Source: Medakamo hakoo
Lineage: Eukaryota > Chlorophyta > Trebouxiophyceae > Coccomyxaceae
Assembly: GCA_026636295.1 (NCBI GenBank)
Contig: CP089459.1
Coordinates: forward strand, 186,001 to 250,000
Direction of reading: 5' to 3'
Length of the DNA: 64,000 nt
How positions within the stretch are numbered: the first letter of the stretch is position 1; every line of letters begins with the position of its first letter. The notes beneath the pieces are model-generated. The model saw only the letters and a program-made list of their open reading frames with translations. It was not told where the DNA came from and ran no database searches. This document shows positions 7,623-29,086 of this stretch, piece after piece. Both the position numbers and the translations under genes were made by a program.

Positions 7623-8801
7623 ATGCCTGCCTCTGGCGACAGCGGCGCCGCCCCGGCCCCCGCGGCGGCGGCGGGTGACGCGCCCGCTGCAGCCGAAACA
7701 AACGCCACACTGGCCGACACCGCTGCAACCACGACCGCCGAGCCGTCCTTCGAGGACATGGTCCGCTACGAGAACGCGATCCGGTGCGTGTGGTAGGGTG
7801 GGCGCGCGGGTGCGCCGGAGGCGCGCACGTAGCGTCGGTTGGATGATGGCGCGGAGAGGCATTCGCACCCGCGTCGCAACCCACCCCCACCCCCACCCTC
7901 TCCATCCCTCCCCCACCCACACACGCACAGCGAGGAAGTCGCGGCGTCCGCCCCCCTCATCGGCGACATCACCCCTCTGTCCTCCTTGGAAGCCGAGTAC
8001 GCGGCCGCCGGCCCCGCGGGCGCCGTCTTCGTGACCAAAATCAGGGGCCTGGCCCCGACATACGCCGCCCTGCGCCGGGCGCGCGGGGACGGCAACTGCT
8101 TTTACCGCGCCCTCCTCTTCGCCCACGCCGAGGGCTGCGTCGCCCGCGCCGACACGGCCGAACGCAACCGGTTCGTCACGCGCTTGAGGCAGGCCGCCGC
8201 CAAGCTGGGCGCGGCGGGGTACGAGCCGCTCGTCTACGAGGACGCGCTGGAGTGTTACGCCGACCTGCTCAACCGCCTGGGCGCGCCCGCCGGCGCCGCG
8301 GCGGACGGGCCGCTGACGCTGCCGGCCCTGGAGGCGGCGGCCCGGGAGGACGCGGTCGCCAACATGTACGTCATGCTGCTGCGGCTGCTGGTCGCGGCCG
8401 AGGTGCGGGCCGGGTGGGAGGAACGGTACGCGCCGTTTGCGATGGGCCTGCACGACGACGTCGCCGACGCGGCCGCGCCCCTGGACGCGTACGTCCGCCG
8501 CCACGTGGAACCGCTGGGCGAGGACGCGGACCACGTGGTCGCGGTCGCGGCGGCGGCCGCCCTGGGCCTGCCCATCACGGTCGTGTACCTGGACCGGTCA
8601 CAGGGCGGCGGTGGCGGCGGCGGGGACGGCGCGGGTGGCGCGGGCGGCGACGAGTCGTCCGCCAACGCGTTCGCGTTCGACCCCGACCCTCCGCCGTCTG
8701 GTGGTGGACCGGTGCCGCCGCGCGTCACGCTGCTCTACCGCCCGGGGCATTACGACATCCTGTACCCGGCGGGCGATGCGGCGCTGGGGCAGCACGGATG
8801 A
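7623..8801 (+). CDS. OTUB1: Otubain-like deubiquitinase (peptidase C65)
   Basis: Cysteine protease that removes ubiquitin, OTUB1/otubain family. Exons 7623-7783 and 7931-8801 give 343 residues in phase. The N-terminal 50 residues are Ala/Pro-rich. The family block PLSSLEAEY leads to the catalytic DGNCFYRA, with Asp and Cys (Cys about residue 110). The catalytic His is in YRPGHYDILYP near residue 327. A Gly-rich insertion sits just before the last strands. The gene is convergent with STT3; only 88 bases separate the two stops. The active site looks complete. Confidence 0.9.
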
Positions 8802-12183: not shown

Positions 12184-12322
12184 TCACCGCCCAGGCGCGG
12201 GCGCGGGCGGCGCGCCGGCGGCGGCCGCCGACGCGGCCGCCACCTTGTCATCCGTCGGTACAGGGGACGGCGACGCGGCGACGGCCCCTCCAGGCGGCAG
12301 CAGGCCCAGGGTGTTGGCCTGG

Positions 12323-12353
<31 letters not shown>

Positions 12354-15300
12354 TCTGCTCCGGCGCGGGTGCAGGCGCCGCGACTGGAGGCGCCGCGGGC
12401 GCGGGCGCGGGCGCGGCCGCCGCCACCGTGGGCGCGGGCGCGGGCGGCAGGGCCACCGCCGGCGCCGGCTTCGCGCCGCGCGCCAGGAGCTTGACTTCCT
12501 CCGGCGCGGCGGGCGTGGGCGGCAGCGTCGGGTCGGGCGGCAGGCCGCCGCGCGCCGCCAGGCGGCCCGGGTCGACGCCGTCGTCCGCCATCCACCGCAC
12601 CAGCTGGGCGGCCGTCGTCCCGTCGATCGCGACCGCACTGGCCTGCAGCGCGTCCGACGTGCCGTACGTGGACGCGAAGGCGTCCACCCAGCCGGACGCG
12701 TCGGCCGGGTCCAGGCGGGACGCGACCGCCCAGACGGCTTGGAGCGTGGACTGGACGCCGACCAGGTGGCGGCGGCCCGACGCGCCCGGGCCCGCCTCGT
12801 CCGCCTGCCAGAGCGGGCCGCCGGAGTCGCCCACCGCGACTTCGCAGCCCGTGAACAGGACGTGACGCCCTGCCATGGGGTCGTCCGCCGCGCCCGGGAC
12901 GGAGGTGTCGCCCGTCGGCGAGCCGGGCGCGGCCTTGCGCGGCGCGCGCGCCGAGGGGCCGGGCGCGCGCGCGGGCGCCGGCGCGCCAGGCGCCGCGGTG
13001 CCCAGCGGCCCGGGCGCGGGGCCGGGCGCCACCGCGCCCGCCGCTGCCGCCGCCACGCCGGCCGCTTCACGCGCCAGGGCCAGCGTGTCGGACGGCAGGA
13101 TGGTGCACCGGGACAGGGACAGGACTTTGGTGCCGTTGGCGGCCGCGCCGCCGTACCCCGCGACCGTGACCGTCGAGTTGACGGGCGGCAGGCCCGCCGC
13201 CGTCGGCGCGGGCGCCTGTTTCTTGGCTTTCGCCTTGTCGCCTTTGGTCGCCGCTGCCACAGCCCGGGGCGGCGGGCCCAGGGCGAAGAAGCCCAGGTCG
13301 TCGCCGGGCGAGCCGTCCAGTTCGAGCAGGGCGTAGTCGAGGCCCAGCAGCGCGTCGCAGTCCGACTTGGCGGCGCGTTCCAGGGCCTTGGTCGGGTCGC
13401 CCGCCAGGTCTTCCAGGCAGCCTTCGAACTGGGGCAGGGCGCGCAGCGACTTGACGCGCACGGGCGCGCCCGGCGACTTGGAGCCGGGCGTGCCGCCGCA
13501 CCCCGCCCCCGCCGCGGGGTAAAACACCATCGTGGCCGGCTCCCGGTTCCGCCGGCCCGTCGTGTTGAAGACGCAGTGGTGGGCGGTCAGCACGTGGCGC
13601 GGGCCCACGAGCGCGGTCGCGCAGTTTTTCTGGGCTTTGGGCGCGGGCGGGCGGGGCGGGCCGCCGATCGCGGGCACGCCCGCGGCCGCCGCGTCGGCCG
13701 CGTCCGACGCGTTGGCGTACATGCGCAGCGCGCCGATGGCGGAGTACGGGAACGAGCCGCGGAAGCGTTGGGGCAGGGGGACGTGGCGGCCGAACAGGGG
13801 GGGGTCGCCCAGGCCGGCGTCGGCCGTGAGCTTGGCTTCCGTGCCGTCGGCCGGCGCGGCCGCAGCGCTGTGCCCCGGCGGGGCGGGGCACACGTCGGGC
13901 AGGGCCGTCAACGCGATGGCCGCCGCGCCCGGCCGGCCGGACGCGGCGCCAGGCGTCCGGGCAATGCGCCGGGCCTGGTCGGCCGCGTCCAAGGCCGAGA
14001 GGGCGGGCGTCCGGGCGGACGGCGCGCCGGCCGGGGTGGCGGCGACAGACGCGGCCTGGCCGGCCGCCGCGGTCTCGCCCCCGCCCAGCAGCGGCGGCCG
14101 CGGGTCGGCCGACCGCGCGCCGGGCGGCGGCCCCGCCCGCTTCAGGTCGTCAGCCGTCACGCCGTCCTCCGCCATCCAGCCCCGCAGCCGTTCCACCGCC
14201 GCGCCGTCGATGGCCGTCGCCAGGCCCTGCGCGGCCGGCTCGCTGTTGGCCAGCGTCGCGTTGACGCGCCGCAGGTGGGCCGCCGCGCCCTTGGCGTCCA
14301 GCGCCACGTACGCGTGCCAGTAATCCATGGACGCCGTCTGCAGGGCCAGCACGGACCGGGGGCCGCCCAGCTTGGGCGGGATCCACAGCGGCGCGCCGCG
14401 CGTGCCGGGGTACATCGCGCACCCGGCCACCAGCGCGGGCGGCGCGCCGCCGTCCACGGGGCCGACGTCGTCGACGAGCGGGCAGACGCTGAACGTCGGC
14501 ATGTTGGCCTCGATGGACGGGCCGCCGTACGCGAGGCGGGACAGGTTGGTGCCGGGCGACGGCAGGGCGGACCCCGGCAGGCCCGACCCCAGGCCAAACC
14601 AGCCGGACGCCTCGCCCGCGGGCCGGTCGAGCGTGAGCAGCGCGTAATTGAAGTCGACGGTCGACCCGGCGCGCGCCCGGTCCGCGGCCGGGCCGTCGGT
14701 GGCGTTTGCGAAGGCGGTGTCCCACGCCTCCCACTCCGGCGCGATGCGGACGCCCGTCACGGCGGCCGTGCCGTTGCGGGAGCAGGTGCCGAAGAGGCCG
14801 GGCACGACCTCGAAGTCGGCCCAGCCCGACGGCGCCGCGCCGCCCTTGGGCGAGTCGTCCCGCCACGTCAGCTCGAAGGTCGGGCGGGAGACGCAGGACG
14901 CGGCCGTGAGCGCGTGGCGGGGGGAGACCATGACGGCCGTGCAGGTCAGGAGCGGGGCCGGGCCGCCGGAGCCGCCGCCGCCCCGGCCGCCGCCCCGCCC
15001 CGTCTCCGCGTACGCCAGCAGCGCGGCGACGGCCGAGTAGGGGTAGCGCGACGGGTCGGCGACGGGGTGGTTTTTGCCGGTGGCGGAGAAGCCGGCGGCG
15101 CCGATGCCGACGCCGTGGTCGCCGAGGGACGCCTCGTCCAGGTTGCCGTAGAGCAAGTCCCAGACGCCGGCCTGGAGGAGGTGTGGATGGGAGGGGAGGG
15201 GGAGAGGATGGGAAACGAGTGGTGCGGGCGCGCGCGAGGGGGTGGGCTCCTCCGCATGCTGTAGCAAGGGGCGGCGACCCGGCACGTAACCCTCGCATTC

Positions 15301-16444: not shown

Positions 16445-17631
16445 TCACCCGCCCCCGCCGCCCGCGCCTCGCTGCATCGCTTCCCACGCCGTCGCGGTCG
16501 CGGCGCCCCCGCCACAGCACGGCGGCCGGGGCAGCAGCACGGCCAGGCCCACCCACGTCACCAGGGCAGCCGCGGCCGCTGCTAGGCCGCCGGCCAGTGC
16601 GGCGTCTAGGGCGTCGGCGGACCAGCGGGTGACCGCCGCGGCGCCGCCGCCGCGGGCGCGCCCGCCGCCCGCACGCGGCGCGAGCAGCCAGGTCAGCCCG
16701 CCGACGCCCATGTACAGCAGGGTCATGACAAAGTGGCAGGCGTGCGTCGCGCACTCAGCCTGGGCGGACGGCGGGAGGGGGGCGGGCGCAGTGGCCCCGC
16801 CCCGCGCGTCCGCCGGCGGCGGCGGCAGAAACGCCGGGCCGAGCTCGCCGTCGCCGCCGTTCCAGCCTCCCAGGATGGCGATGAGGGCCGCCCGGCCGAC
16901 GGCGCCCCACACGTCGACCAGGCGGGAGTAGAAGTAGGCCAGGAGCGGGTAGGCGCGCAGCAGGTGGGCGCACGCGACCTGTTGCGTGAGCGCGACGGCG
17001 GCGGCCTGGCCGGCGAGCATGGCGGCCAAGGCCCGGCCGCGCGGGAGGCCGGTGGAGGCGGAGAGGATGAAGACGTTCATGGGCCCGGTGCGAGCTGTGC
17101 GCGGGGTGTGAAGGGGTGGGTGGGTGGTGAGCATGGCGGGGCCCCCTTCCATGAGCCGCGCGCGGCGTGTGGGTGCGACACACCGCCCCCACCCACACAA
17201 AAAAACGCACTCTTCCAAAACCAGGCCCAGCTCGGGACGGGCTGGCCTTTCCGCGGGCCTTGCGACAGGACGATGGCGACGTTGTGCAAGGCCACAAAGG
17301 CGATGCGCAAGGCCACGGTCAGCGGCGTGCGCACGCGGGCGTACGCGCGGCCGCCCCGGGCAGCGAGCACGGCCGCGCACCCATACACGACCGCGATCGT
17401 CGCGCAGACGGCGTACGCGCCCGCGCCCGTGACGCGGGCCAGGGCGCCCAGGGCGATGGCGGTGATGAGGGTGTAGGCCAGCGCGTTGGCGCGGTCGAGA
17501 GTCGAGGAAGGCGTCGTGCGCGGCATGGTGCGGGACGTCGTCGACGGGCCGGGGTGCGGGGAGGGGGTGGGCAGCGACGGCGGCGGTCGCGCCGCTGACG
17601 GGCCGGCGGCCACGGCCGCGGACGGGCACAT
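16445..17631 (-). CDS. Array gene A: tandem 7-TM cysteine-motif family, two exons
   Basis: First (lowest-coordinate) member of a seven-gene tandem family that I do not recognise. Exons 17631-17211 and 17094-16445 give 356 residues. A second ATG at 17526 would remove 35 Pro/Ser-rich residues. The intron falls just before the family block TRTGPMNVFILSAS; the other six copies have no intron there. Conserved features are GRAYARVR, a His-Asn in the third hydrophobic segment (VALHNVAIV), TQQVAC, FYSRLVDVWG, CATHAC and LLPRPPCC. About seven hydrophobic segments suggest a membrane protein. Function unknown. The TGA stop lies in GGGTGAGT next to a simple repeat, so a short 3' exon is possible. Confidence 0.8.
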
Positions 17632-18092
17632 GGCGCGCCGCCTGTCGTCTCCTTCCGATTGCAGCTCCGCCTCTCTGGATTGCGTTGCCACGGGCCCTGG
17701 CCTGCCGCTACTCTGAGGTTTGGGGACGGGGAGCAGGGCCGGCGGGCGGCGGCGGGCCTCCCAAATGCGCGCGCTGGCACCGCGGGCCCGCGCGGACGAG
17801 CGAGAAGGTGAAATGGTAGAAAAGAGAAAAAATGTGTAACATAACAACAGGCTTGAAAGCCTGTCTGTAAAAACAAGCCAGCGGCGGCGCCAGACTCGGC
17901 GCGCGGCCTCCCACACACGCGCAGGAGAGCAGGGCACAGATGCTCCCCCGCCCTGCGCGCTGGGGAGACACGCCGCGAGTCTGGCGCCAGCGGCCAACCC
18001 ACACCCCCCCTAGTAAAGGAAGAAAAAAAAAGAAGCTGCGCGGCCAGCACGACCCGCAGGTTGGTCGAAAGACCGGTCGCCAACGGCCGCGC
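17632..18092. other. Spacer A-B containing a long imperfect inverted repeat
   Basis: 461 bases with no exon. It contains an 8-bp stem with a 2-base loop (17848-17865) and a larger foldback: GGCGCCAGACTCG at 17886-17898 is the exact reverse complement of 17976-17988. A smaller pair, GCAGGGC/GCCCTGC, lies inside (17929-17935 and 17950-17956). Confidence 0.7.
17886..17988. repeat. Inverted repeat / foldback (13-nt perfect outer arms)
   Basis: Arms 17886-17898 and 17976-17988 are perfect reverse complements, and partial pairing extends outward (AAGCCAGCGG against CCGCTGG) and inward. On the minus strand it would lie about 100-200 bases after the stop of gene B. Confidence 0.7.
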
Positions 18093-19070
18093 TCACTGCC
18101 CGCCACGCAGGGCCGCGACGAGCGGCCAGGCCGCGGCAGCGGCCGCCGCCTCACAGCCCGGCGGCCGGGGCAGGAGGATTGCGATGGCGGCCCAGGCCGC
18201 CAGCGCCGCGGCGGCCGAGCCCAGCACCGCCGCGATGACGCGGTCGGGCCGGGTGGCGGCGCCCGGGTGGCCGCCGTCCCAGCCGCCGCGGTGGCCGGGC
18301 GGCGGGCGCCGCCGCACGTCCGGGCGGGCCCACAGGTACGCGCCGAGCGCGGCCAGGGCGTACAAGTGGCCCTGGACGGCCCGGCACGCGTGCAGGTTGC
18401 ATGCCGCGGCGGGCGGTGCGGCCGCCAGCGGCGCCCGCCGGCCCGCGCCGCCGACCCGCCCGCCGTCCGCGCCGCCCACGACGGCCGTCCACGCCAGGCG
18501 GGCCGCACCGGTCCAGGCGTCCGCCAGCGCGTTGTAGTAGTACGCGATGGCGGGGTAGTTGGCGTTCATGGTCGCGCACGTCCCCGCCTGGGTGAGGGCG
18601 GCGGCCGCCAGCTGGGAGCCCAGCATGATCGCCAGCGGCCGCCCGCGCAGGCAGGGCGCCGGCGCGGCCAGGTTGAAGAAGAGCGTGATCAGCGGGCCCG
18701 TCCGGCCCGCGAAGAAGATGGGCCACGACACGGCCTTGAGCGGGCGTTGCGGGCCGACGTTGGCCGCGACGATCAGGTTGTGCGCGGCCGTCAGGGCGAC
18801 GCGCGTGCCGACGGCCAGGGCGACGCGGGCGCGCGGCGAGCGCGGGCGGCCGGCCACGGCCGCGGCCGTGACCAGGGCAAAGGCGGCCGCGACGGCGGCG
18901 CACCAGAAGCGCGCGGCCAGCGTCACAACGCGGGCCGCGCCAAAGGCCGTGAGGGCGGCCATGAGGGCGTACGGTCCGGCGGCGCTCGTGCCACCGCCGT
19001 CGCCGCCGCCGGGGGCGGCGGTCCGGGTGCGTGGCGGCATGGAACAGGACGCGGGTTGGGCCCAGGCCAT
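18093..19070 (-). CDS. Array gene B: tandem 7-TM cysteine-motif family
   Basis: Single-exon member, 325 residues from ATG 19070 (a second ATG at 19040 gives 315). Same order of parts as its neighbours: Ala-rich N-terminal segments, TAAHNLIVAAN, GRTGPLITLFFNLAAP, TQAGTC, YYYNALADAWTG, CNLHACRAVQG, LPRPPGC. It is intronless where gene A has its intron. The RL-D-W motif is altered (NALADAW). About seven hydrophobic segments. Function unknown; placed by clear similarity to the adjacent copies. Confidence 0.8.
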   Translation of the reverse strand: MAWAQPASCSMPPRTRTAAPGGGDGGGTSAAGPYALMAALTAFGAARVVTLAARFWCAAVAAAFALVTAAAVAGRPRSPRARVALAVGTRVALTAAHNLIVAANVGPQRPLKAVSWPIFFAGRTGPLITLFFNLAAPAPCLRGRPLAIMLGSQLAAAALTQAGTCATMNANYPAIAYYYNALADAWTGAARLAWTAVVGGADGGRVGGAGRRAPLAAAPPAAACNLHACRAVQGHLYALAALGAYLWARPDVRRRPPPGHRGGWDGGHPGAATRPDRVIAAVLGSAAAALAAWAAIAILLPRPPGCEAAAAAAAWPLVAALRGGQ

Positions 19071-19518
19071 GAAAGGGTGTGGAGAGGGTGTGGTGCCGCG
19101 GGTCGAGCGCGCGCGCGAATAGAGGAACAAGCCGTGCGCCGCGCGCGCTCCTCACCGCCGATTGCCCGCTCCCTGACGTCTCCGCCAGAGTGGAGCAAAG
19201 CGCCGCCAGAATGTCACGCACGTGCGGGTGTGGGTGGGGCTGCCATGGCCTGGCCGAGGGATCGCGCGCGAGTTGAGGCGCGGCGGCAAAACGGAAAACA
19301 AGACAAGGACGCGCCTATGGATGATGAGTAAGGCAGCAACGAATACTTGGTTTACTTGGTCACACACACCACACACCAAAACAACCGAAACAGGCCGTAG
19401 CTGCGTGCAAACAGCTACCGCCCGTGCTTTTGAAGACCACGCCCACACTCTCTCTTGATCTCACTTGAATTGACTCTGTCACTGCATGAGACAGGGAAAG
19501 ATAAAAAAACACTCTCAC
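19071..19518. other. Spacer B-C
   Basis: 448 bases, more AT-rich than its surroundings, with CACACACCA repeats. I see no conserved exon or structural RNA. Confidence 0.4.
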
Positions 19519-20760
19519 TCACCCGCCGCTTGCTTCCAGGGCGGCCCACCCCGCCGTCGCGGCGGTCGCCGGGCACCAGGCCGGCCGGGGCATGGCCGCC
19601 GCGCCCACCGTCCACGCCGCGCCCGCGAAAAAGGCGGACGTGAGGGAGGCGGCGGCCGCGGCCTCCACCTTGGCCAGCAGGCTGCGTTGAACGGGCGGCG
19701 CATCTTCTTCTTCTGTTGGCGGCCGGCGCGGCCGCCGGGGCGCGGCCTGGTAACAGGACACGGCGCTGATGGCGTAGAGGGCGCCCAAGACCAAGCGGCA
19801 CGAGTGGATGGTGCAGGCGTTGAGGGCTGGGCGGGCCAGGGCTGGCGCGGTGGCGGCGGCGGCGGCGGCCGCTTCCTCTGGCTGCCCGCCACAACAGCTC
19901 CCGCGCCCGCCTCCGCCTCCGCCGCCGCCCAAGACCGCCACCCAGCCGAGCGCGGACGCGCGGTCGACCACGTCCACCAGGCGGTTGTAGAAGAAGGCGT
20001 AGTCCAGCGTCCACCCGGCCTGGCTGGAGCAGGCGCCGCGCTGCGTCAGGGCCAGAAGGAGCCACTGCGCGGCCAGCAGCGCGCCCAAGCCCGGGCCGCG
20101 GCGGAACCCGGCGGACAGGTTCAGGACGGTGAACATCAGCGGCCCCGTCCGCGCCATGAAAAAGGCCGGCCACGTCCGGACCGGCATGGCCAGCTTGTAG
20201 TGCCGGTTTTTCCAGACGACGATGTTGTGCAGGCCGGCAAAGACGGCGCGGAGCAGCACGGCCAGCGCGGCGCGGTGGCGGGCGTACGCCCGCCCGCCGC
20301 GCGCGGCCCACAGCGCGCCGACCATGTACACCAGGCCAATCACCGCGCACATCCGTGACGACTCCGCCGTCGACGTCTGGCGCGTGGCCAGCATGCAAAA
20401 GGCGGCGGTGACGCCGTAGGTCGCGAGGTCGACGGTCGCCTGGCTGGGCGGCGGGCGTGGCCGGCGGCGGCCGGGCCGGCCCGTCGAGGGCGCGGCAGCC
20501 GCCGCGGCCGCCTTGCCCTTGCCATCGCGTCCCGTCCACGGGCGGGCGGCGGTGGCAGCCGGGTCAGCCTTGCCGGGCGGGCAGGGCGAGGGAGTGGAGG
20601 TCGGCGTGGTCGGTGGACTGCCGTGGCTGTCGGCGGGACGGCCCAGGACCGTTCTTCCCGCGGCCGCCGCGTCTTTCGCACCACTCCACGCCGCCTGGGC
20701 GCACTCCACATGCCGGCTTCTGGTTGAAGGACCGCAGGCGTCGGCGCCTACGCCGCCCAT
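19519..20760 (-). CDS. Array gene C: tandem 7-TM cysteine-motif family, long N-tail
   Basis: Single-exon member, 413 residues from ATG 20760; the longest copy because of a roughly 110-residue Pro/Ala/Ser N-terminal tail. Family marks are GRAYARHRAALAVLLR, AGLHNIVVWKN, ARTGPLMFTVLNLSAG, TQRGAC, FFYNRLVDVVD, CTIHSCRLV and MPRPAWC. The N-tail may be partly untranslated, because several in-frame starts would trim it, although no later ATG is especially well placed. Function unknown. Confidence 0.78.
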   Translation of the reverse strand: MGGVGADACGPSTRSRHVECAQAAWSGAKDAAAAGRTVLGRPADSHGSPPTTPTSTPSPCPPGKADPAATAARPWTGRDGKGKAAAAAAAPSTGRPGRRRPRPPPSQATVDLATYGVTAAFCMLATRQTSTAESSRMCAVIGLVYMVGALWAARGGRAYARHRAALAVLLRAVFAGLHNIVVWKNRHYKLAMPVRTWPAFFMARTGPLMFTVLNLSAGFRRGPGLGALLAAQWLLLALTQRGACSSQAGWTLDYAFFYNRLVDVVDRASALGWVAVLGGGGGGGGRGSCCGGQPEEAAAAAAATAPALARPALNACTIHSCRLVLGALYAISAVSCYQAAPRRPRRPPTEEEDAPPVQRSLLAKVEAAAAASLTSAFFAGAAWTVGAAAMPRPAWCPATAATAGWAALEASGG

Positions 20761-21079
20761 GGCGACGAAAAACAAAAAAAAACGAAACAGGGGTGCACAG
20801 CGGGCGCAGGACGATGCGAGCAGCGGCGAGCGCGTGCGGTCTGTTCGGGTCGCTCACGCCCGTGCCCGCGCGCCAATTCCGCGGGCGCAGGCGTCGGTGG
20901 AAGCCTCAATCTTGTGGGTGACGCGGGCAACGCGGGCGGACAGCCGCGGCAGGCGGGGGCGCTGCCCCAGGGGCGCGGCGGCCAACAAGGGCCGCCAAAC
21001 AGAGTGTGTGGGCGGAAAACATTCCCCACCCCGGCGACGGGGTGTCCCACCTCCCCTGACTACACACGACGCCTGTCTC
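20761..21079. other. Spacer C-D
   Basis: 319 bases of GC-rich sequence. I see no exon, RNA gene or repeat. Confidence 0.4.
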
Positions 21080-22051
21080 TCACCCACCGCCCGCAGCCAC
21101 CACGTGCGCCCACTCGGCCGCCGCCGCTGCCTGTGCACACCCGTGCGGCCGGGGCAAGGCCACCGCCAGCCCACCCCACGCGGCGGCTGCTGCCGCGAGG
21201 GTCGCCAGCCCCGCCGCAGCAGCCGCCTCGACCAGAGGGGCAGGCTGGCGCGCCCGCCCCCGCCGGCCCGGCGGTGGCGGCGCGAGCGCGTACGTCGCGG
21301 CCGCGACGACCAGGTACATGCCCAGCGTGACGGCGGTGCAATCGCGGGCGACGCACGCCGCCGTCCAACCGTTTGGGCAGGCGGCCGGGTCGGGCGCTTG
21401 GCTGCCGGCACCACCACCACCGCCGCGACTGCCGCCGCCGCTGCCACCACCGCCGCCGCCCAACACGGCGCGCGCCGCCATCCCCGCCCAGGCGTCCCAC
21501 ACGTCGACCAGGCGGCAGAAGTAGTAGCCGACGACGGGGAAGGCGCGGGCCATGCCGCCGCACCCGGCCCGCTGCGTCGCCGCGGCGGCGGCGACCTTGG
21601 CGGCCAGCAGGCCGGCCAGGGCGCGGCCGCGCGGCCACTGCGTCGCCGCGTTGAGCAGCGCCAGCAGTAGCGGCCCGAACCGGCTCGCCCAGAACAGTCC
21701 CCACGTCGGCGGCGGCATCGGCCGCCTCGGCCTGGCGCTCCACACGAAGAGGAGGTTGTGCGCGATGATGAAGCCCAGGCGCAGGGAGACGGCCAACGGG
21801 CTGCGGAGCCTGTCATAGGCCGGCCCGCCCCGGGTCGCCGCGGCCGCGGCGGCCGCAAACGCGGCCGCGCAGGCCGCCAGCCCCCATTCGGCCGCCGCGC
21901 CCGTGACGGTGTTGATGGAGGTGACGGAGATGCAGGCCATCGTGCCGTACGTGACCGCGTCGACGGCCGCCGCAGTGTGCGGCGCAGACCGCTGGCGTTG
22001 TTCAATGACTGGGAGCGCAGTCGATGATCTAGCTCCTACCTCATCAGGCAT
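21080..22051 (-). CDS. Array gene D: tandem 7-TM cysteine-motif family, variant His motif
   Basis: Single-exon member, 323 residues from ATG 22051. It has the full set of hydrophobic segments and TSINTVTG, RGGPAYDRLRSPLAVSLR, IIAHNLLFVW, SRFGPLLLALLN, TQRAGC, YYFCRLVDVWDAW and LPRPHGC. It is the only copy whose C-x2-H-x-C motif is changed: CVARDC, with His replaced by Arg. Both cysteines remain. Function unknown. Confidence 0.8.
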   Translation of the reverse strand: MPDEVGARSSTALPVIEQRQRSAPHTAAAVDAVTYGTMACISVTSINTVTGAAAEWGLAACAAAFAAAAAAATRGGPAYDRLRSPLAVSLRLGFIIAHNLLFVWSARPRRPMPPPTWGLFWASRFGPLLLALLNAATQWPRGRALAGLLAAKVAAAAATQRAGCGGMARAFPVVGYYFCRLVDVWDAWAGMAARAVLGGGGGGSGGGSRGGGGGAGSQAPDPAACPNGWTAACVARDCTAVTLGMYLVVAAATYALAPPPPGRRGRARQPAPLVEAAAAAGLATLAAAAAAWGGLAVALPRPHGCAQAAAAAEWAHVVAAGGG

Positions 22052-22575
22052 TTTTAGCTGCACGCTCTAATGCACAAGAGTGGTAGGCGTGCGCCCCAGC
22101 ATGGAGAGGGAGAGAGGGAGGAGAGAGAGAGAGAGAGAGAGCCAGAGAGAGCGGCGTGTTGCTCGACGGCGGCAACGAAATAGAAAACGCGCGACCAGCG
22201 CGACAGTGGCGGACCGTGTCTGCCCTCCGCACTAGCTCATCAAGGTTTTTGATCAGCAGTGAACCGACGTTGAAAGTGCAGCGCGGAGTGGGCGCCTGCT
22301 GGCGGCGTGGTGGCTCTCACGTGAGAGCCACGTCAAAACGCGCGACGAAACCTCTCTGTCCCTCAGTCATCCATGTCTCATTTTTGTTTTCGTTTCACAC
22401 CCCGAATACACGGCAATCAACCCACGCACAATCGTGCCGTCCCCTCTCCCACCCATGATCTAATACAAAATGCGGCAGCAGCACAGCGCTCGGGTCAAAT
22501 GTCCCCGGCAGCAGCGCTCGCCCGAAAGCGCCACAGCAAACAAAAAAACATTTCTCTCTCCCGCGCCTGGGTCGC
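22052..22575. other. Spacer D-E with GA repeat and palindrome
   Basis: 524 bases between D and E, AT-richer than the coding sequence. It has a GA-rich simple repeat (about 22103-22150) and a perfect 22-bp palindrome at 22310-22331. No exon seen. Confidence 0.5.
22310..22331. promoter_or_regulatory. 22-bp perfect palindrome centred on CACGTG
   Basis: GTGGCTCTCAC followed directly by its reverse complement. The centre is the G-box/E-box hexamer CACGTG. It lies about 260 bases upstream of the D start codon on the minus strand, so it could be a bHLH or bZIP site for gene D. That role is inferred. Confidence 0.5.
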
Positions 22576-23535
22576 TCACGGGCGACTCAAGGTTTGGACG
22601 GACCCCACATCGCCCAGCCAGTGCGCCGCGCTGGCGGCCGCGCTACCCACACAACCCTCCGGCCGCGGCAGCGCCGCGCCCAGCCCCAACCAGGCCAGCG
22701 TGCCAAACGTCGCGGCCGCGCCGAGGCCGCCTGTTGCCGCATGCAGCAGCGCGACCGGCCACGGTCGCCGCGGTGGGCGCCGTCGTTGGGCGTGTGCGGG
22801 GGCTGCGCCAGGTGGCGCGGCCGCCCAAGTCAGGGCCAAGACCGCCAAATACAGGCCGTCCGTGACTTTGACGCACGCGTGCTGGCCGCACGCGGCGGCG
22901 AGGGGTTCCGGGAGTGGGGAGGCGGACGGGGCACGGCCACCACTGCCGTCAGCCACGCCCGCGCCAAGCGTCGCGGCCAGGGCCGCGCGCGCGCCCGCCG
23001 ACCACAAGTCTTCCAGTCGGCCGTAGAAGAAGCGCAGGACAGGGTAGGTGGACAGGGAGCCGCGGCAGCCCGCGGGCGTGGTGACGGCGACGAGGACGGC
23101 CTGGGCGACAAGGCTGGCCGCCAGGCGGGGCCCCCGCCCGCCCACGGCCGCGTTGGTCGACAGGTTGAGGAACAGGAGCATGGACTGGCCGTGGCGCGTC
23201 AACCAAAAGTGCGGCCACGCCACGGCCGGCGGCAGGTCGTGGCGGCGGCCGTCCGACAGGGCGAAGCAGGCCGAGTGCGCGCCGGCAAAGAGGGTGCGCA
23301 GCGCGACGGCGAGCGTGGCGCGGTTGCGCGGGCCGTACGCCCGCGGGCCGCCCGTGCGCGCCAGGGACGCGACCAGCAAGAAGAGCGCGCCCCACGCAGT
23401 GCAGTAGGCGATGGCGTGGGTCCCCGTGATCAGGTTGATGCCGGCGCAGCACATGACGGCGGCGAGCGTGTATGTCCACGCGTCGTTGGTGTGCGAGGAG
23501 GCGGCCGCCCGCCGCGCCGGCGGTGGTGGCACCAT
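22576..23535 (-). CDS. Array gene E: tandem 7-TM cysteine-motif family
   Basis: Single-exon member, 319 residues from ATG 23535. Marks are INLITGTHAIAYC, GPRAYGPRNRATLAVALR, AGAHSACFAL, RHGQSMLLFLNLS, TTPAGC, RFFYGRLEDLWS, CGQHACVKVTDGLY and LPRPEGC. It shares TTPAGC and the VT-LY pattern with F and G rather than the TQ form of A-D. The invariant HN of segment 3 is HS here. Function unknown. Confidence 0.8.
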   Translation of the reverse strand: MVPPPPARRAAASSHTNDAWTYTLAAVMCCAGINLITGTHAIAYCTAWGALFLLVASLARTGGPRAYGPRNRATLAVALRTLFAGAHSACFALSDGRRHDLPPAVAWPHFWLTRHGQSMLLFLNLSTNAAVGGRGPRLAASLVAQAVLVAVTTPAGCRGSLSTYPVLRFFYGRLEDLWSAGARAALAATLGAGVADGSGGRAPSASPLPEPLAAACGQHACVKVTDGLYLAVLALTWAAAPPGAAPAHAQRRRPPRRPWPVALLHAATGGLGAAATFGTLAWLGLGAALPRPEGCVGSAAASAAHWLGDVGSVQTLSRP

Positions 23536-24023
23536 CTTTTTTTTTCTCCCGCCGCGCTCCAGGGGGGTAAGAGAGAGGGGGGAGCCTCTGCAACAGTCGC
23601 CCGCCGTCTCAGAGAAAAGACACACAGAGAGAGGACAGACGACCCGCAATCTCACCTGCTTCTTCTCCCTGTCTCGCAGAAGAAGCAGGGGTTGAGGATG
23701 GGGATGGGGTGTCGGGGGCCGTCACGCGAGGCGGCTAGAAAATGCGGCTTTGCAGCAACGAAAAACGACCACGCCCAAACCCAGTGCTACCGTTTCACTG
23801 CTTCACAAGGCTTCAGGCCGAAGCTTATAAATACCAGTCACGTAAATAGCAAGGATTCAGCCATGGCGGGTGGGTGGGAAGGGCCTGGGCCGCGGCCGGA
23901 AAGAGGGCGAGCGAGCGCGCCCCTTTTTTTTCGTCGTCGCTCTGTCACTGTACTCATTTTTTTCGTCTGGACAAAATAAACACTCCTTTGGATTCAACAA
24001 GCAACAAAATAGAAACTCTCCTG
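23536..24023. other. Spacer E-F
   Basis: 488 bases with AT-rich stretches. TATAAATA occurs at 23826-23833 (TATTTATA on the minus strand, 291 bases upstream of the E start). I see no supported exon; a 38-codon plus-strand ORF after it has no recognisable content. Confidence 0.4.
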
Positions 24024-24917
24024 CTATATCACGCCCGCATCCCACCGCTCTAAGTAATGCCACGTCGCCGCGGCCGCCGCGCCTGCACAGCCGGCAGGCC
24101 GAGGGTTGAGCCGCGGCAGGCCGGCCCACGTCGCGACCGACACGCCCGCCACCACGGCCGCCACGCCCAGCCGCCCACGCCCACTCCCCCGGGGAGCGAC
24201 CGCCCAGGACAGAGCGGCCACCAGGGCGTAGAGCGCGAGCGTGACTTGCACGCACGCGTGCCGAGCGCACGCGGCCGCGTCGGCGGGCGGGAGGTCGGGC
24301 GCCGCGGCCGCACGCGCGGCGCCTCCCCACAGGTCCACCACCCGGCTGAACAGGGGCTGCAGGGCCCGGTACGCCAGGACGCTTTTGCAACCGGCGGGCG
24401 TGGTCGCCGCCGCCACCACCGCCTGCGCGCCCAGCACGGCCGCGAGGCGCGGCCCGGCCGGCCACGCGACCGCCAGGTTGAGCAGGAAGACGAGGACCGG
24501 CCCGAACCGGCTGGTCCAGAAGGCGGGCCAGGGGTGGGCGCCGACAGCGGCGGGCACGCCGTGGCGGAAGCCCTGGGAGAGGGCCAGGATGGAGTTGTTG
24601 ACGCCCGCGAGGAGGACGGCCAGGGCGGCGGCCAGCCGCGCGCGCGCCGCGGGCGACAGGCGGCCGGACAGGACGCTGTGGGCCGCCGTCGCAAAGAGGG
24701 CGGTGCAGGCCGCGCAGTACGCGAGCGCAGCCGTCCCCGTCGTGGTGTTGAAGGCTGCGATGTGCGCCAGGGAGATGAGGGCGTACGCCGCCGCGTCCGT
24801 CGCGGGCGCGGTCAGGTGGTGGTGGCGGCGGCAGTGGGGCGGCCACGCGGCGGGCGTCGGCGCGCGCGCATCACTCGCCGCCTCGCGTCCGCCACGCCGC
24901 GCCAGGTCAGCGCTCAT
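24024..24917 (-). CDS. Array gene F: tandem 7-TM cysteine-motif family
   Basis: Single-exon member, 297 residues from ATG 24917. Marks are FNTTTGTAALAYCAAC, NNSILALSQGFRHG, SRFGPVLVFLLNLA, TTPAGC, FSRVVDLWGG, CARHACVQVTLALYALV and NPRPAGC. It is most like gene G, especially in the LALYALVAxLSWAVAP segment. Only 160 bases separate its start from the stop of G, the shortest gap in the array. Function unknown. Confidence 0.8.
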   Translation of the reverse strand: MSADLARRGGREAASDARAPTPAAWPPHCRRHHHLTAPATDAAAYALISLAHIAAFNTTTGTAALAYCAACTALFATAAHSVLSGRLSPAARARLAAALAVLLAGVNNSILALSQGFRHGVPAAVGAHPWPAFWTSRFGPVLVFLLNLAVAWPAGPRLAAVLGAQAVVAAATTPAGCKSVLAYRALQPLFSRVVDLWGGAARAAAAPDLPPADAAACARHACVQVTLALYALVAALSWAVAPRGSGRGRLGVAAVVAGVSVATWAGLPRLNPRPAGCAGAAAAATWHYLERWDAGVI

Positions 24918-25077
24918 GAGCGATGCCGACGATTAGGCAGGACAGGCAAGCTACGACCTGGGCCGCGCCATGGTCGATCGGGGCGGGGCGGATTTTGACG
25001 GGCAAACGAGCCGGCAAAGGAAAAGGGGAGAGCGCTTTCGGTGTGTGACTAACCGCCCCAGCGCGCCCGGCCTCCCG

Positions 25078-26037
25078 TCACGCCCGCCCAACACACTCGC
25101 CCGGCCGCGGCAGCAGGCGGGGTAGGCCCGTCCACACTGCACCCGCCACAGCCACCGGCACCCACCAGCCGCCCAGGCGGCCGTGTCGCCGCCGCGTGCC
25201 GCCCGGCAGCGACGCGGGCGCGGGCGCGACGGCCCAGGAGAGGCCGGCCACCAGGGCGTAGAGCGCGAGCGTGACGACGACGCACGCGTGGTCGCCGCAG
25301 GCGGGCGGGGCGGGGTGCGGCGGCGGGGCGCCCGGCACGGCGGCCGCATCCCCCAGCGCCGCCCGCGCCGCCGCCCGCCAGCCCGCGCCCCACACATCCG
25401 CCAGGCGCGTGAAGAAAGGGGCCATGACCTCGTACGCGGCGAGGGACTTGCGACAGCCCGCCGGCGTGGTGGCGGCGGCGACGACGCCCTGCACGGTCAG
25501 CAGGGCAAGCAGGCGCCGGCCGCGCGGGAAGCCGGCCGCCAAGTTGAGCAGCAGCACGTGGAGCGGGCCAAACCGGGTGGACCAAAAAAACGTCCACGGC
25601 CGGGTCGTGGCCGAGCCGGGGACGCGCCTGAAGCCTTCCGACAGCGCCAGCACCGTGTTGTGCAGGAACCCGGCCAGGATGCAGAGCGCGGCGGCCAGCC
25701 CGTCCCGCCGCGCGGGCGTGAAGCCGGCCTCGCCAAAGGCCGCGGTCCAGGCCGCGCACAGGAAGACGGCCGCGCACCCGACGCAGTACGCGACGGCGGC
25801 CGTGCCCGTCGTCATGTTGATGCCCGCCAGGTCGACGGCCGCGGCCAGGACGTACGCCGCGGCGTCCATGGTGGCTCTGTGAGCGTGGGAGCCGGCGGCG
25901 CACGCGTCGGGCGTCGTCAGGGCGGGGGCGGCGGCGGTCGCAGCGGCGGTGGTGGCTGGGTTGGGGCGCGTCGCCCCCGTCCGAGCCGGCAGCGCAGAGG
26001 AGGCAATTGGCGGTTCGCTCCCGCTCCGGGACGCCAT
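25078..26037 (-). CDS. Array gene G: tandem 7-TM cysteine-motif family
   Basis: Last member, single exon, 319 residues from ATG 26037. A later ATG at 25869 starts right at the conserved DAAAYVLAAAV. Marks are INMTTGTAAVAYC, LHNTVLALSEGF, TRFGPLHVLLLNLAAG, TTPAGC, FFTRLADVWG, CGDHACVVVTLALYALV and LPRPGEC. It ends shortly after PRPxxC. A glycosyltransferase gene in the same orientation follows upstream. Function unknown. Confidence 0.8.
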   Translation of the reverse strand: MASRSGSEPPIASSALPARTGATRPNPATTAAATAAAPALTTPDACAAGSHAHRATMDAAAYVLAAAVDLAGINMTTGTAAVAYCVGCAAVFLCAAWTAAFGEAGFTPARRDGLAAALCILAGFLHNTVLALSEGFRRVPGSATTRPWTFFWSTRFGPLHVLLLNLAAGFPRGRRLLALLTVQGVVAAATTPAGCRKSLAAYEVMAPFFTRLADVWGAGWRAAARAALGDAAAVPGAPPPHPAPPACGDHACVVVTLALYALVAGLSWAVAPAPASLPGGTRRRHGRLGGWWVPVAVAGAVWTGLPRLLPRPGECVGRA

Positions 26038-26272: not shown

Positions 26273-26375
<103 letters not shown>

Positions 26376-26377
<2 letters not shown>

Positions 26378-28576
26378 ACCCAAAGGACGCCCCCACCTTT
26401 TTGTTCAGCTCGCGGAACGCCAGGCCGATCTCCTTGCCGTTGATGACGCCGCTCGCGCCCTGCACCGGGTTGAAGTCTTTGATGGTCCACACCAGGCCGA
26501 CGGCGGCGAGGGCCGAGCCGGCGGAGACGAGCTGGGCCAGGCGGCAGGCCAGGTGCAGCAGGATGCCGGGGCCGCCGACCGCGGCGTACGCGAGCAGCAA
26601 AAACGGTGGCACGGCCGCGTGCGCGGCCCACAGCACGGAAATGAGCAGCGGCGACAGCACGGCCGCGCCGGCGACCAGCTGCCAGATGGCGACGGCGATG
26701 GTGACGGCCAGCACGAACAGGAAGACGGCGTGCAACCAGACGTCGCCGACGATGGACGGGTTGGACAGCTTGCCCTTGCCCTTGGCCGTCGCCTTGAAGG
26801 AGACGGAGGAACAGCAGAAGAAGATGCGCGCCCACAGCATGCGCCAGGCGGCTTTGACGTACGCCCACCACAGGATGGAGTTGGCGATGTCGGCAAACCA
26901 CAGGGCCTCGACGTGGCGCGGCGTGCGCACGTAAAACTGGAGGAGCGTCGTCGCCGCGGTGTACGCCGTCAGCGCGCCCGCAAACCAGCGGTCGATGATG
27001 CACGGGAAGATGCCCGCCCAGATGGTGATGAGCGGGATGGCGGTGTAGGTGGGGATGGTGAGCGCCGACACCAGGTAGCACCAGACGCCGGAGCAGTAGA
27101 GCAAGCGGTCGCGGAGGGGGAGGCCGGCCTGGACGAGCGGGTTGCGGCGCGGGTGGAAGACGATCTTTTCGTTTTTTTTTGTTGTTGGTTGGTTGGAGAG
27201 GGTTTGTGTGAGCGTCCTTTGTTTGCGCCGCAACAAAAGACCGCGTGTGGCGTCAACACCCCCTCAAACAACTCACCTGGAAGTGGCCTTTGGCCCAGCG
27301 CGAGCGCTGCTGGAAACAGTTGCGCACGCCGGACGGCGCTTCGCCGACGGCCAGGTAGGCTTGCACGTACCGACAGTGCCAGCCCCGCTTTTTCAGCTCC
27401 ATGCCCAGGGCGTAGTCTTCGGTGAGCGTGTACTCGGGCGACCAGCCGGCGTCGCGGAACTGGTGTTTTGTGGGTGGTGTGGGTGGTGGTTGGAGAGGAA
27501 TGGGATGGAAAAACCAACTAAGGCTTGCCGCCCGCCCATGTTCACCACACGCACAAACTCACCGCTTTCGCCCGGACTAAAAAGTTGGTCCCGGTGCAGG
27601 AAATGAAGCCGACGGCGTCGTACCCGGGCTGGGCGTACTCCCAAAAGTGGATGTTGGAGTGGTTGAAGATGTCGGAGTGCAGGTCGAGGTTGTGGAAGCA
27701 CTGTGTGTATGACAAAGGCGGGTGGGGGTGGACGGATGGACGGGCGGGGTGGACGGGACGGGGTTGGCGCGCGGCTTGGCGCGCGCGCACCTCCCACCCT
27801 CCCTCTCGCTCCTCCTCCTCCTCCTCCATCGTCCGCCGCACCTGGGGCGACAACACCATGGCCACGTCGTCGCCGCCGTCGAACAGGGGCAGCGTGCGGG
27901 CGAAGAACTCGGACGTCGCGACCTGGTCCGCGTCAAAGACGCACACCAGCTCATTGCCCGGGATCTCGACGCCGTCGGGGTAGAGCTGGCGGCACACGTT
28001 GTTCAGGTTGCCCGACTTGCCGTTCATTTCGCCTGGGGGGCGGGACCGGCCGGACACGTAGACAAAGCCGGGTCCCAGCCCGCGCACCCAGGCCTTTTTG
28101 GCCTTGTCCCGGCCGTCGTCGCACAGGTACACAGTCCGCGCGCACCCGGCCGGCAGGGGCGCCGCCGCCGCGGCCAGGATGGTGCGCTGCACGATGTCCA
28201 GGTCTTCCTTGTAGCACGGCACGAGCACGCGGACGTGGTACGGCAGCGCGACGGCCGGCATGCCGGGGACGGGGTGGCCCGGGTCCGGCCGCGCCCGCTC
28301 GTGCAGGGGGATGAAGAGCAGGTTGTACGCGTACAGCGCCACCGTGGTCGCGCCCACGGCTTCGACGGCCAGGACGAACCAGCCGTACCCGGCGTACGCG
28401 CCCGTGAGCCCCTTGAGCGTGCGGGCGATGCGGACGTACAGGTAAAAGGCCAGGGACGCCAGCCAGAGCAGGGTCAGGGCCCACGCGGTCGGGTTGGGGC
28501 GGGACGACCGCGCAAAGGCGTAGCCCAACGCCCCCCGGCCGACGGCCGTGGGCGGCAGGCGGGAGTGGGACGGCGT

Positions 28577-28609
<33 letters not shown>

Positions 28610-29086
28610 GCCAGCCGCAGTCCCGGCTTCCATCGTGGCCGCGACGTCTGGCGCCGCGCCGGGCGCGACGGACCCGGACGTCGCCCAGGCGGCCGGCGGC
28701 GGCGCGGGCTGGTAGGGCGCGGGGCGCGGGGAGGAGGGCGGCGGCGCGGCGGCCGCGGCCGTCGGTTCGGGCACGACGCCGACGCGGGAGTCGTCAAAGG
28801 CGGGCGCACCCGTTTCCGAAGACCGGCGGTGACTGGGCGGCGGCGCGGGCGCGACGGTGCCGGAGGTGCGGCGGGAGGAGGGCGGGCCTGCGGGCGCGGG
28901 GTGGGGAGAGGGAAGGGGTCGCCGTCAGTTTCGGCCACCCACACAAAACCGCCACGCACACCCCCCCCCCTGCCCACCTCCTCTCTCACCTGGTGGCGCC
29001 TGGTCCGCGGTCGCACGAGCCGAGCCCAGCGGCGAAAAGGCTTCCACGCCGCCCGGGCGTGGAGACGGGTCGGGCGTGGGCGCCAT
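26376..29086 (-). CDS. Processive family-2 glycosyltransferase (cellulose synthase-like)
   Basis: Membrane polysaccharide synthase of the GT2 family. Exons are 29086-28990, 28887-27842, 27700-27563, 27459-27277 and 27164-26376, giving 750 residues in phase. After a Pro/Ala-rich N-tail come two TM helices. The catalytic domain has YLCDDG (about residue 289), VFDADQVA (about 349), LTEDYALGMELKKRG (about 441) and QQRSRWAKGHFQ (about 478), the D,D,D,QxxRW set of cellulose, hyaluronan and mannan synthases. Five or six TM helices follow. The product cannot be told from motifs. It lies beside the 7-TM array in the same direction, and its promoter faces a PhyH gene. Confidence 0.88.

What the first reader, a model, noticed from the sequence alone, without database searches (positions are those of the whole stretch)
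16445..26037. Seven-gene tandem array of an unrecognised 7-TM protein family
Seven adjacent minus-strand genes encode proteins of about 300-410 residues with the same order of hydrophobic segments and short motifs. I cannot match them to a named family. They are strongly diverged outside the motifs, which argues for old duplication kept under selection. Tandem membrane families of this kind often serve surface sensing, defence or transport; that role is inference. This is the best candidate for an undescribed system in the window.
Basis: partly seen in the sequence, partly recalled or inferred. Interest (0 to 1): 0.85.

Follow-up and report, generated by a model that had tools for sequence, protein, structure and literature searches.

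The report
Undescribed algal seven-helix membrane protein family
A tiny green alga carries a row of seven related, strongly diverged genes for seven-helix membrane proteins that match no family in the databases searched; the family looks real and old, but what it does is still a guess.

Summary
Seven minus-strand genes lie at 16445-26037; pairwise identity is 32-54% and all 21 pairs score far above shuffles. G1 is spliced. The genome (15.64 Mb, 16 contigs) fits the green alga Medakamo hakoo; that identity is inferred. Five relatives came from the 5.8-billion-protein set, unnamed or only 'hypothetical protein'. A tree puts P0001 beside G7 (95/91), so duplication predates at least one species split. 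No Pfam or NCBIfam model matched above its cut-off, and PDB sequence searches gave only noise. Two AlphaFold2 models are confident (pLDDT 85-86, pTM 0.81), yet Foldseek finds no PDB match at E<=0.001. Anatomy: seven membrane helices, an extra helix in the 5-6 loop, four conserved cysteines, conserved Arg/Asn/Gln. Best reading: an undescribed surface or endomembrane carrier or receptor family; function unproven.

The parts
16445..17631 (-). G1, two exons (17631-17211 and 17094-16445), 356 aa
   Evidence: frame and homology continue across a GT...AG intron
17095..17210 (-). Intron of G1 (116 bases; donor gtgcgt)
   Evidence: read from sequence, no RNA data
18093..19070 (-). G2, 325 aa from the ATG at 19070
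19519..20760 (-). G3, about 413 aa from the ATG at 20760; long unconserved N-terminal tail
21080..22051 (-). G4, about 323 aa from the ATG at 22051; AlphaFold2 model 2 covers 21083-21979
22576..23535 (-). G5, 319 aa from the ATG at 23535
   Evidence: closest array gene to P0006
24024..24917 (-). G6, 297 aa
25078..26037 (-). G7, 319 aa (conserved core 263 aa from 25869); AlphaFold2 model 1 covers 25081-25869
25453..25455 (-). G7 conserved cysteine C139, in the last part of helix 5
   Evidence: 13 of 13 rows; helix
25282..25299 (-). G7 conserved cysteines C191 and C196, at the start of the second-last membrane helix
   Evidence: 13 of 13 rows each
25093..25095 (-). G7 C-terminal cysteine C259 of LPRPxxC
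   Evidence: 7 of 7 rows of A5; C8- and C4-type members have a Cys just before the shared Pro instead

Best explanation
SHOWN: the seven genes are an old tandem expansion of a multi-span membrane protein family with at least nine members in this algal genome (seven in the array, one on C8, one more distant on C4) and relatives in other samples; no curated family model used here covers it. PREDICTED: seven membrane helices plus one helix in the helix 5-6 loop, amphipathic in the array-type rows. INFERRED: N-terminus inside, C-terminus outside; the four conserved cysteines then lie on one non-cytosolic side and probably form two disulfides that tie the helix 5-6 loop and the C-terminal tail over the bundle; conserved polar residues in or at the edge of the bundle (Arg55, Asn71, Arg99, Gln127 in G7-core numbering) form a shared central site. 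No other domain was found, so the proteins most likely act on their own in the plasma membrane or an endomembrane as small-molecule carriers (somewhat preferred) or as receptor or channel subunits, each copy tuned to a different ligand. My estimates: genuine undescribed family 0.9; seven-helix, disulfide-braced anatomy 0.7; carrier-like function 0.3; receptor- or channel-like 0.25; something else 0.45.
For: Homology of all seven. C8-type against array 98.0% and C4 against C8-type 97.5% by hhalign; eight reversed controls 0.1-1.7%. Five relatives. Tree: P0001 beside G7 (95/91), C8-type clade 100/100. Twelve columns identical in 13 of 13 rows. Models at pLDDT 85.2 and 85.7, both pTM 0.81, same helix order. 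Loop before the last membrane helix net positive in 13 of 13 rows (+1 to +7); the 5-6 loop helix has the highest hydrophobic moment of its protein in 9 of 9 array-type rows (0.27-0.49). No other domain in Pfam.
Against: The helix 3-4 loop, which this topology puts outside, is positive in 12 of 13 rows (0 to +4), and the other inside loops are only weakly positive. In the four C8-type rows the 5-6 loop helix is no more amphipathic than others (0.17-0.24), so eight spans are possible there. The C4 member is weak by pairwise search (E 0.0067), and its own genome search returned only itself. No expression, location, ligand or mutant data. Ala/Ser/Pro/Arg-rich N-terminal tails could be organelle targeting peptides. 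No shared neighbour hints at a pathway: GT2 and trypsin-like genes flank the array, an inositol monophosphatase gene C8, a chlorophyll-binding-like gene C4.
Confidence: 0.5

Rival explanations
1. Ligand-gated channels or chemoreceptors: a green-algal branch of the insect-receptor-like seven-TM ion channels (7TMIC/GRL/DUF3537), kept as a diversified repertoire.
For: Seven predicted spans, inferred N-in/C-out, strong divergence; inclusion in that superfamily relies mainly on seven TM and an intracellular N-terminus, and it has members in unicellular eukaryotes and plants (passages and abstract of PMC9998090).
Against: Longest predicted helix is 28 residues; helix 4 is a 12-13 residue helix after a short one, not a long projecting TM4. 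The last helix is continuous in the G4 model, but broken at residue 235 in the G7 model. No odorant-receptor chain among the listed Foldseek matches, which does not exclude one.
Confidence: 0.07
2. Free-standing relatives of the membrane domain of membrane adenylyl cyclases, acting as receptors or as partners of a separate cyclase.
Against: Both Z lie under the level of about 13 that the tool gives as caution for helical bundles. The aligned range runs across both membrane halves of the cyclase. Foldseek gives AC9 E 3.9, prob 0.16 in one search and lists no cyclase at E<=10 in the other. No catalytic domain in the family; cyclases have six TM per half.
Confidence: 0.06
3. Plastid membrane proteins (envelope or thylakoid) with cleaved N-terminal targeting peptides, for example metabolite or ion carriers.
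For: Long basic Ala/Ser/Pro-rich N-terminal tails in several members (sequences).
Against: Tails are unconserved and very different in length (about 1 to 110 residues before helix 1, depending on the start chosen). Such composition is general in a 73% GC genome (paper on amino acid content). No targeting predictor was available.
Confidence: 0.15
4. A lineage-specific structural or assembly membrane family (cell wall, secretion) without a transport or sensing role.
For: Neighbouring glycosyltransferase gene on the same strand; published thick cell wall.
Against: The neighbourhood is not shared by the C8 and C4 copies. Conserved polar residues suggest more than a scaffold.
Confidence: 0.2

Closest known systems
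7TM ion channels (insect Or/Gr, GRL, plant DUF3537)
   Same: Seven predicted spans; inferred N-in/C-out; very divergent.
   Different: No long TM4-6 projection in the models; four conserved cysteines; small core (about 263 aa); no Pfam match.
Membrane domain of adenylyl cyclases (AC5, AC9)
   Same: First in VIA-align ranking for both models.
SWEET / MtN3 sugar carriers
   Same: Seven TM and similar length (recalled).
   Different: No MtN3 match in Pfam at E<=10; no internal repeat by profile comparison of the halves.
Seven-TM G-protein coupled receptors
   Same: Seven spans.

Membership tests
7TMIC / GRL | Seven TM and intracellular N-terminus | tested here: inconclusive
   Seven spans predicted; N-in only by charge counts, with one contrary loop
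7TMIC / GRL | Long TM4, TM5, TM6 projecting below the bundle (anchor domain) | tested here: not met
   In predicted models only: helix 4 is 12-13 residues, longest helix 28; criterion from passages of PMC9998090
7TMIC / GRL | TM7 split into TM7a and TM7b | tested here: inconclusive
   Continuous 249-274 in the G4 model; 231-234 and 236-252 in the G7 model
Adenylyl cyclase membrane domain | Cyclase TM1-5 / TM7-11 bundle fold | tested here: inconclusive
Adenylyl cyclase membrane domain | Attached class III cyclase catalytic domain | tested here: not met
   No such Pfam match in array, C8 or C4 proteins; the one genome match to PF00211 lies elsewhere on C6
SWEET / MtN3 | MtN3 repeats | tested here: not met
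   No Pfam match at E<=10; halves compared by hhalign 0.2%
GPCR | 7tm sequence profile | tested here: not met
   No Pfam 7tm match at E<=10
GPCR | N-out / C-in and G-protein coupling | not testable with these tools
   Topology only inferred

The most novel reading that the evidence does not exclude
A new superfamily of eukaryotic seven-helix membrane proteins with a fold not yet solved and at least three deep branches (array, C8, C4), which in picoplanktonic green algae forms a diversified cell-surface receptor or carrier repertoire, possibly descended from the same bundle as the adenylyl-cyclase membrane domain.
Probability: 0.12. Interest if true: 0.75.

Novelty: new variant of a known kind. 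Interest (0 to 1): 0.42.

Why it matters
A streamlined alga with 7,629 predicted nuclear genes (PMC9871001; species inferred) keeps at least nine copies of one membrane protein family that no library used here recognises. If the fold is really unsolved, one structure would add a new membrane fold. If it is a carrier or receptor family, it would bear on how a cell of about 1 micrometre samples its surroundings. Undescribed tandem families are common in algal genomes (recalled), so the surprise is moderate until a function is known.

Tried and rejected
No relative was found by viral-contig scans with P0001, P0004 and G4, a GTDB genome-contig scan with P0003 or a phage tblastn with P0003. PDB sequence searches gave 12 and 26 rows, nearly all antibody chains matching the Gly-rich loop, best E 0.095 and 0.02. 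Weak family-library rows, all below cut-off and judged noise: PsbT 3.8 and DUF6455 0.28, 2TM_P5A-ATPase 0.27, GVDTG_CTERM 0.02. Foldseek against viral models: best E 1.9. No library of predicted cellular structures was on hand, so a known fold there is not excluded.

Weak extra genome matches: C3:355666 (E 2e-5) reads, in its own frame, as part of a 638-residue soluble-looking frame with a nucleotidyltransferase-like motif (recalled) and a poly-Gly run, so it is not a member (my first reading was in the wrong frame). C8:411704 has a poly-Gly start and no family anchors. Seven further rows (E 0.007-0.12) and four (E 0.004-9.5), beyond the array, C8, C4 and the two above, were not followed.

Internal repeat: none. 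Shared exact 8-mers between intergenic stretches: only two simple ones, in four of eight stretches. The three protein searches scored only the 7,993-7,998 candidates sharing most words, so relatives may be missed.

Papers: 'Medakamo hakoo' search, 6 papers; a five-term family search, listing only. Of PMC9871001 I saw the outline and abstract, Results parts 1-2 of 3, and two found passages; 'tandem', 'duplicat' and 'transmembrane' occur 0 times in its main text. Of PMC12868012, the start of the abstract and a term search with 0 occurrences. Of PMC9998090 and PMC9433096, starts of abstracts and passages. Supplementary tables were not read.

Full report
OBSERVATION. Seven minus-strand frames occupy 16445-26037. 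Six are single open frames; G1 needs an intron at 17210-17095 with GT...AG ends, after which frame and homology continue. Local pairwise identities are 32-54%. Against 100 shuffles per pair, all 21 array pairs give z between 19 and 54, so Ala/Gly-rich composition does not explain the similarity. GC at third positions is 0.86-0.95, and 35-50% of identical residues use different codons. The seven are real, old paralogues.

ORGANISM. The genome has 15,638,232 bases in 16 contigs and the window is C6:186001-250000. GC of the 2-kb stretches of the window is 64-82%. Medakamo hakoo is published with 16 nuclear contigs flanked by telomere repeats, 72.7% GC and 15.8 Mb including two organelle contigs (Results). 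I infer that species or a very near one. Neighbouring genes are ordinary nuclear genes: STT3, trypsin-like, PhyH, TPT, NMD3, MFS and an AAA-domain protein, with a GT2 glycosyltransferase just upstream.

EXTENT OF THE FAMILY. I searched the genome with G7, P0001, G4, P0006, G2, P0005, G3 and the C4 protein. The C8 match (240620-241303, E 1.1e-7 with G4) also came with P0006 and P0005, not with G7, P0001, G2 or G3. The C8 gene has a short first exon with the same gtgcgt donor as G1 (exons read by eye). P0005 also showed C4 (E 0.0067), a 378-residue intronless frame. C4's own genome search found only itself, so its membership rests on profiles: C4 against C8-type 97.5% (E 7e-12), against the array 90.1%, against both together 97.9%; array against C8-type 98.0% (E 2e-13); eight reversed controls 0.1-1.7%. 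The C8 protein scores z 8.9-18.9 against the seven array proteins, and its reverse -0.7 to 2.8. Nine members is a lower bound, because only the best candidates are scored.

RELATIVES ELSEWHERE. Three searches of 5.8 billion proteins, each limited to about 8,000 candidates, gave P0001, P0003-P0005 and P0006 on a 560-kb contig. Sources name them 'hypothetical protein' or not at all. In a maximum-likelihood tree of 13 rows (C4 not included) the C8-type is one clade (100/100), P0001 pairs with G7 (95/91), G6 joins them (100/98), then G5 (80/83) and P0006 (89/89); G1, G4, G2 and G3 lie deeper, with two open forks. Tree order follows array order for G7-G6-G5 and roughly beyond, with G1 as the exception, as stepwise tandem duplication would give. 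The G6/G7 duplication predates the split from the P0001 source; the place of P0006 is only moderately supported.

STRUCTURE. Model 1 (G7 core, 263 aa, 13 rows): pLDDT 85.2, pTM 0.81. Model 2 (G4, 299 aa, 14 rows): pLDDT 85.7, pTM 0.81. Both show helices 1-3, a short helix and then helix 4 around the FWxxRxGP motif, helix 5, a further helix in the 5-6 loop, and two more membrane helices. The loop helix has moments of 0.27-0.49 in array-type rows, the highest of its protein in 9 of 9, but 0.17-0.24 in the four C8-type rows. I read it as a surface helix in the array genes and leave an eighth span open for the C8-type. Twelve residues are identical in 13 of 13 rows: R55, F95, R99, G117, L120, C139, C191, C196, V199, Y204, W246, P256. 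In a 10-row alignment with C4, 11 columns are invariant, among them R131, R195, C234, C281, C286, V289, W351 and P364 in C4 numbering. A fourth cysteine follows the last helix in all 14 sequences (read by eye), after the shared proline in array-type rows and before it in C8- and C4-type rows.

HOW IT MIGHT WORK. The loop before the last helix is net positive in 13 of 13 rows (+1 to +7), which suggests inside; the helix 5-6 loop (-3 to +2) suggests outside; the helix 3-4 loop (0 to +4, positive in 12 of 13) disagrees. With N-in/C-out all four cysteines face one non-cytosolic side, so two disulfides are plausible. Conserved Arg55, Asn71 (12 of 13), Arg99 and Gln127 (12 of 13) would line or edge the bundle. 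With no other domain found, a carrier or a receptor or channel subunit is the likeliest class; I put carrier at 0.3 and receptor or channel at 0.25. None of this is shown.

COMPARISON AND NOVELTY. Pfam gives nothing above cut-off for the array genes (G1 as its two exon frames), C8, C4 or the five relatives. NCBIfam was run on eight proteins (six array genes, P0006, P0004) and gives nothing above cut-off. PDB sequence profiles, whose rows held six and four array genes (A1, A9), give noise. SWEET and GPCR are not met by profile; 7TMIC is not met on helix length in the predicted models. As far as these searches reach, the family is genuine and unnamed. Undescribed tandem membrane families are a familiar kind of object, so I rate it a new variant of a known kind, of moderate interest.

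Noticed in passing
L025:3973-5020 (C8:240473-241520): Single family member on C8 with a short first exon, divergently placed next to an inositol monophosphatase family gene.
   Followed up: yes
L036:1289-2422 (C4:1154289-1155422): Third, most diverged branch of the family, intronless, near a gene with a chlorophyll a/b-binding match (E 5.9e-6).
   Followed up: yes
window 26275-26377: Long CT/GA dinucleotide run (51.5 copies, 98% matches) between the array and the glycosyltransferase gene.
   Followed up: no
window 12187-15285 (-): 1,033-residue frame with a trypsin match (E 1.2e-8) and, by eye, two protease-like halves.
   Followed up: no
window 26379-28774 (-): Apparently multi-exon glycosyltransferase family 2 gene directly upstream of the array on the same strand (exons by eye).
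   Followed up: partly
G000:C6:572028-572402: The one match to the class III cyclase domain PF00211 in the genome, E 2.2e-6, two candidates scored.
   Followed up: no
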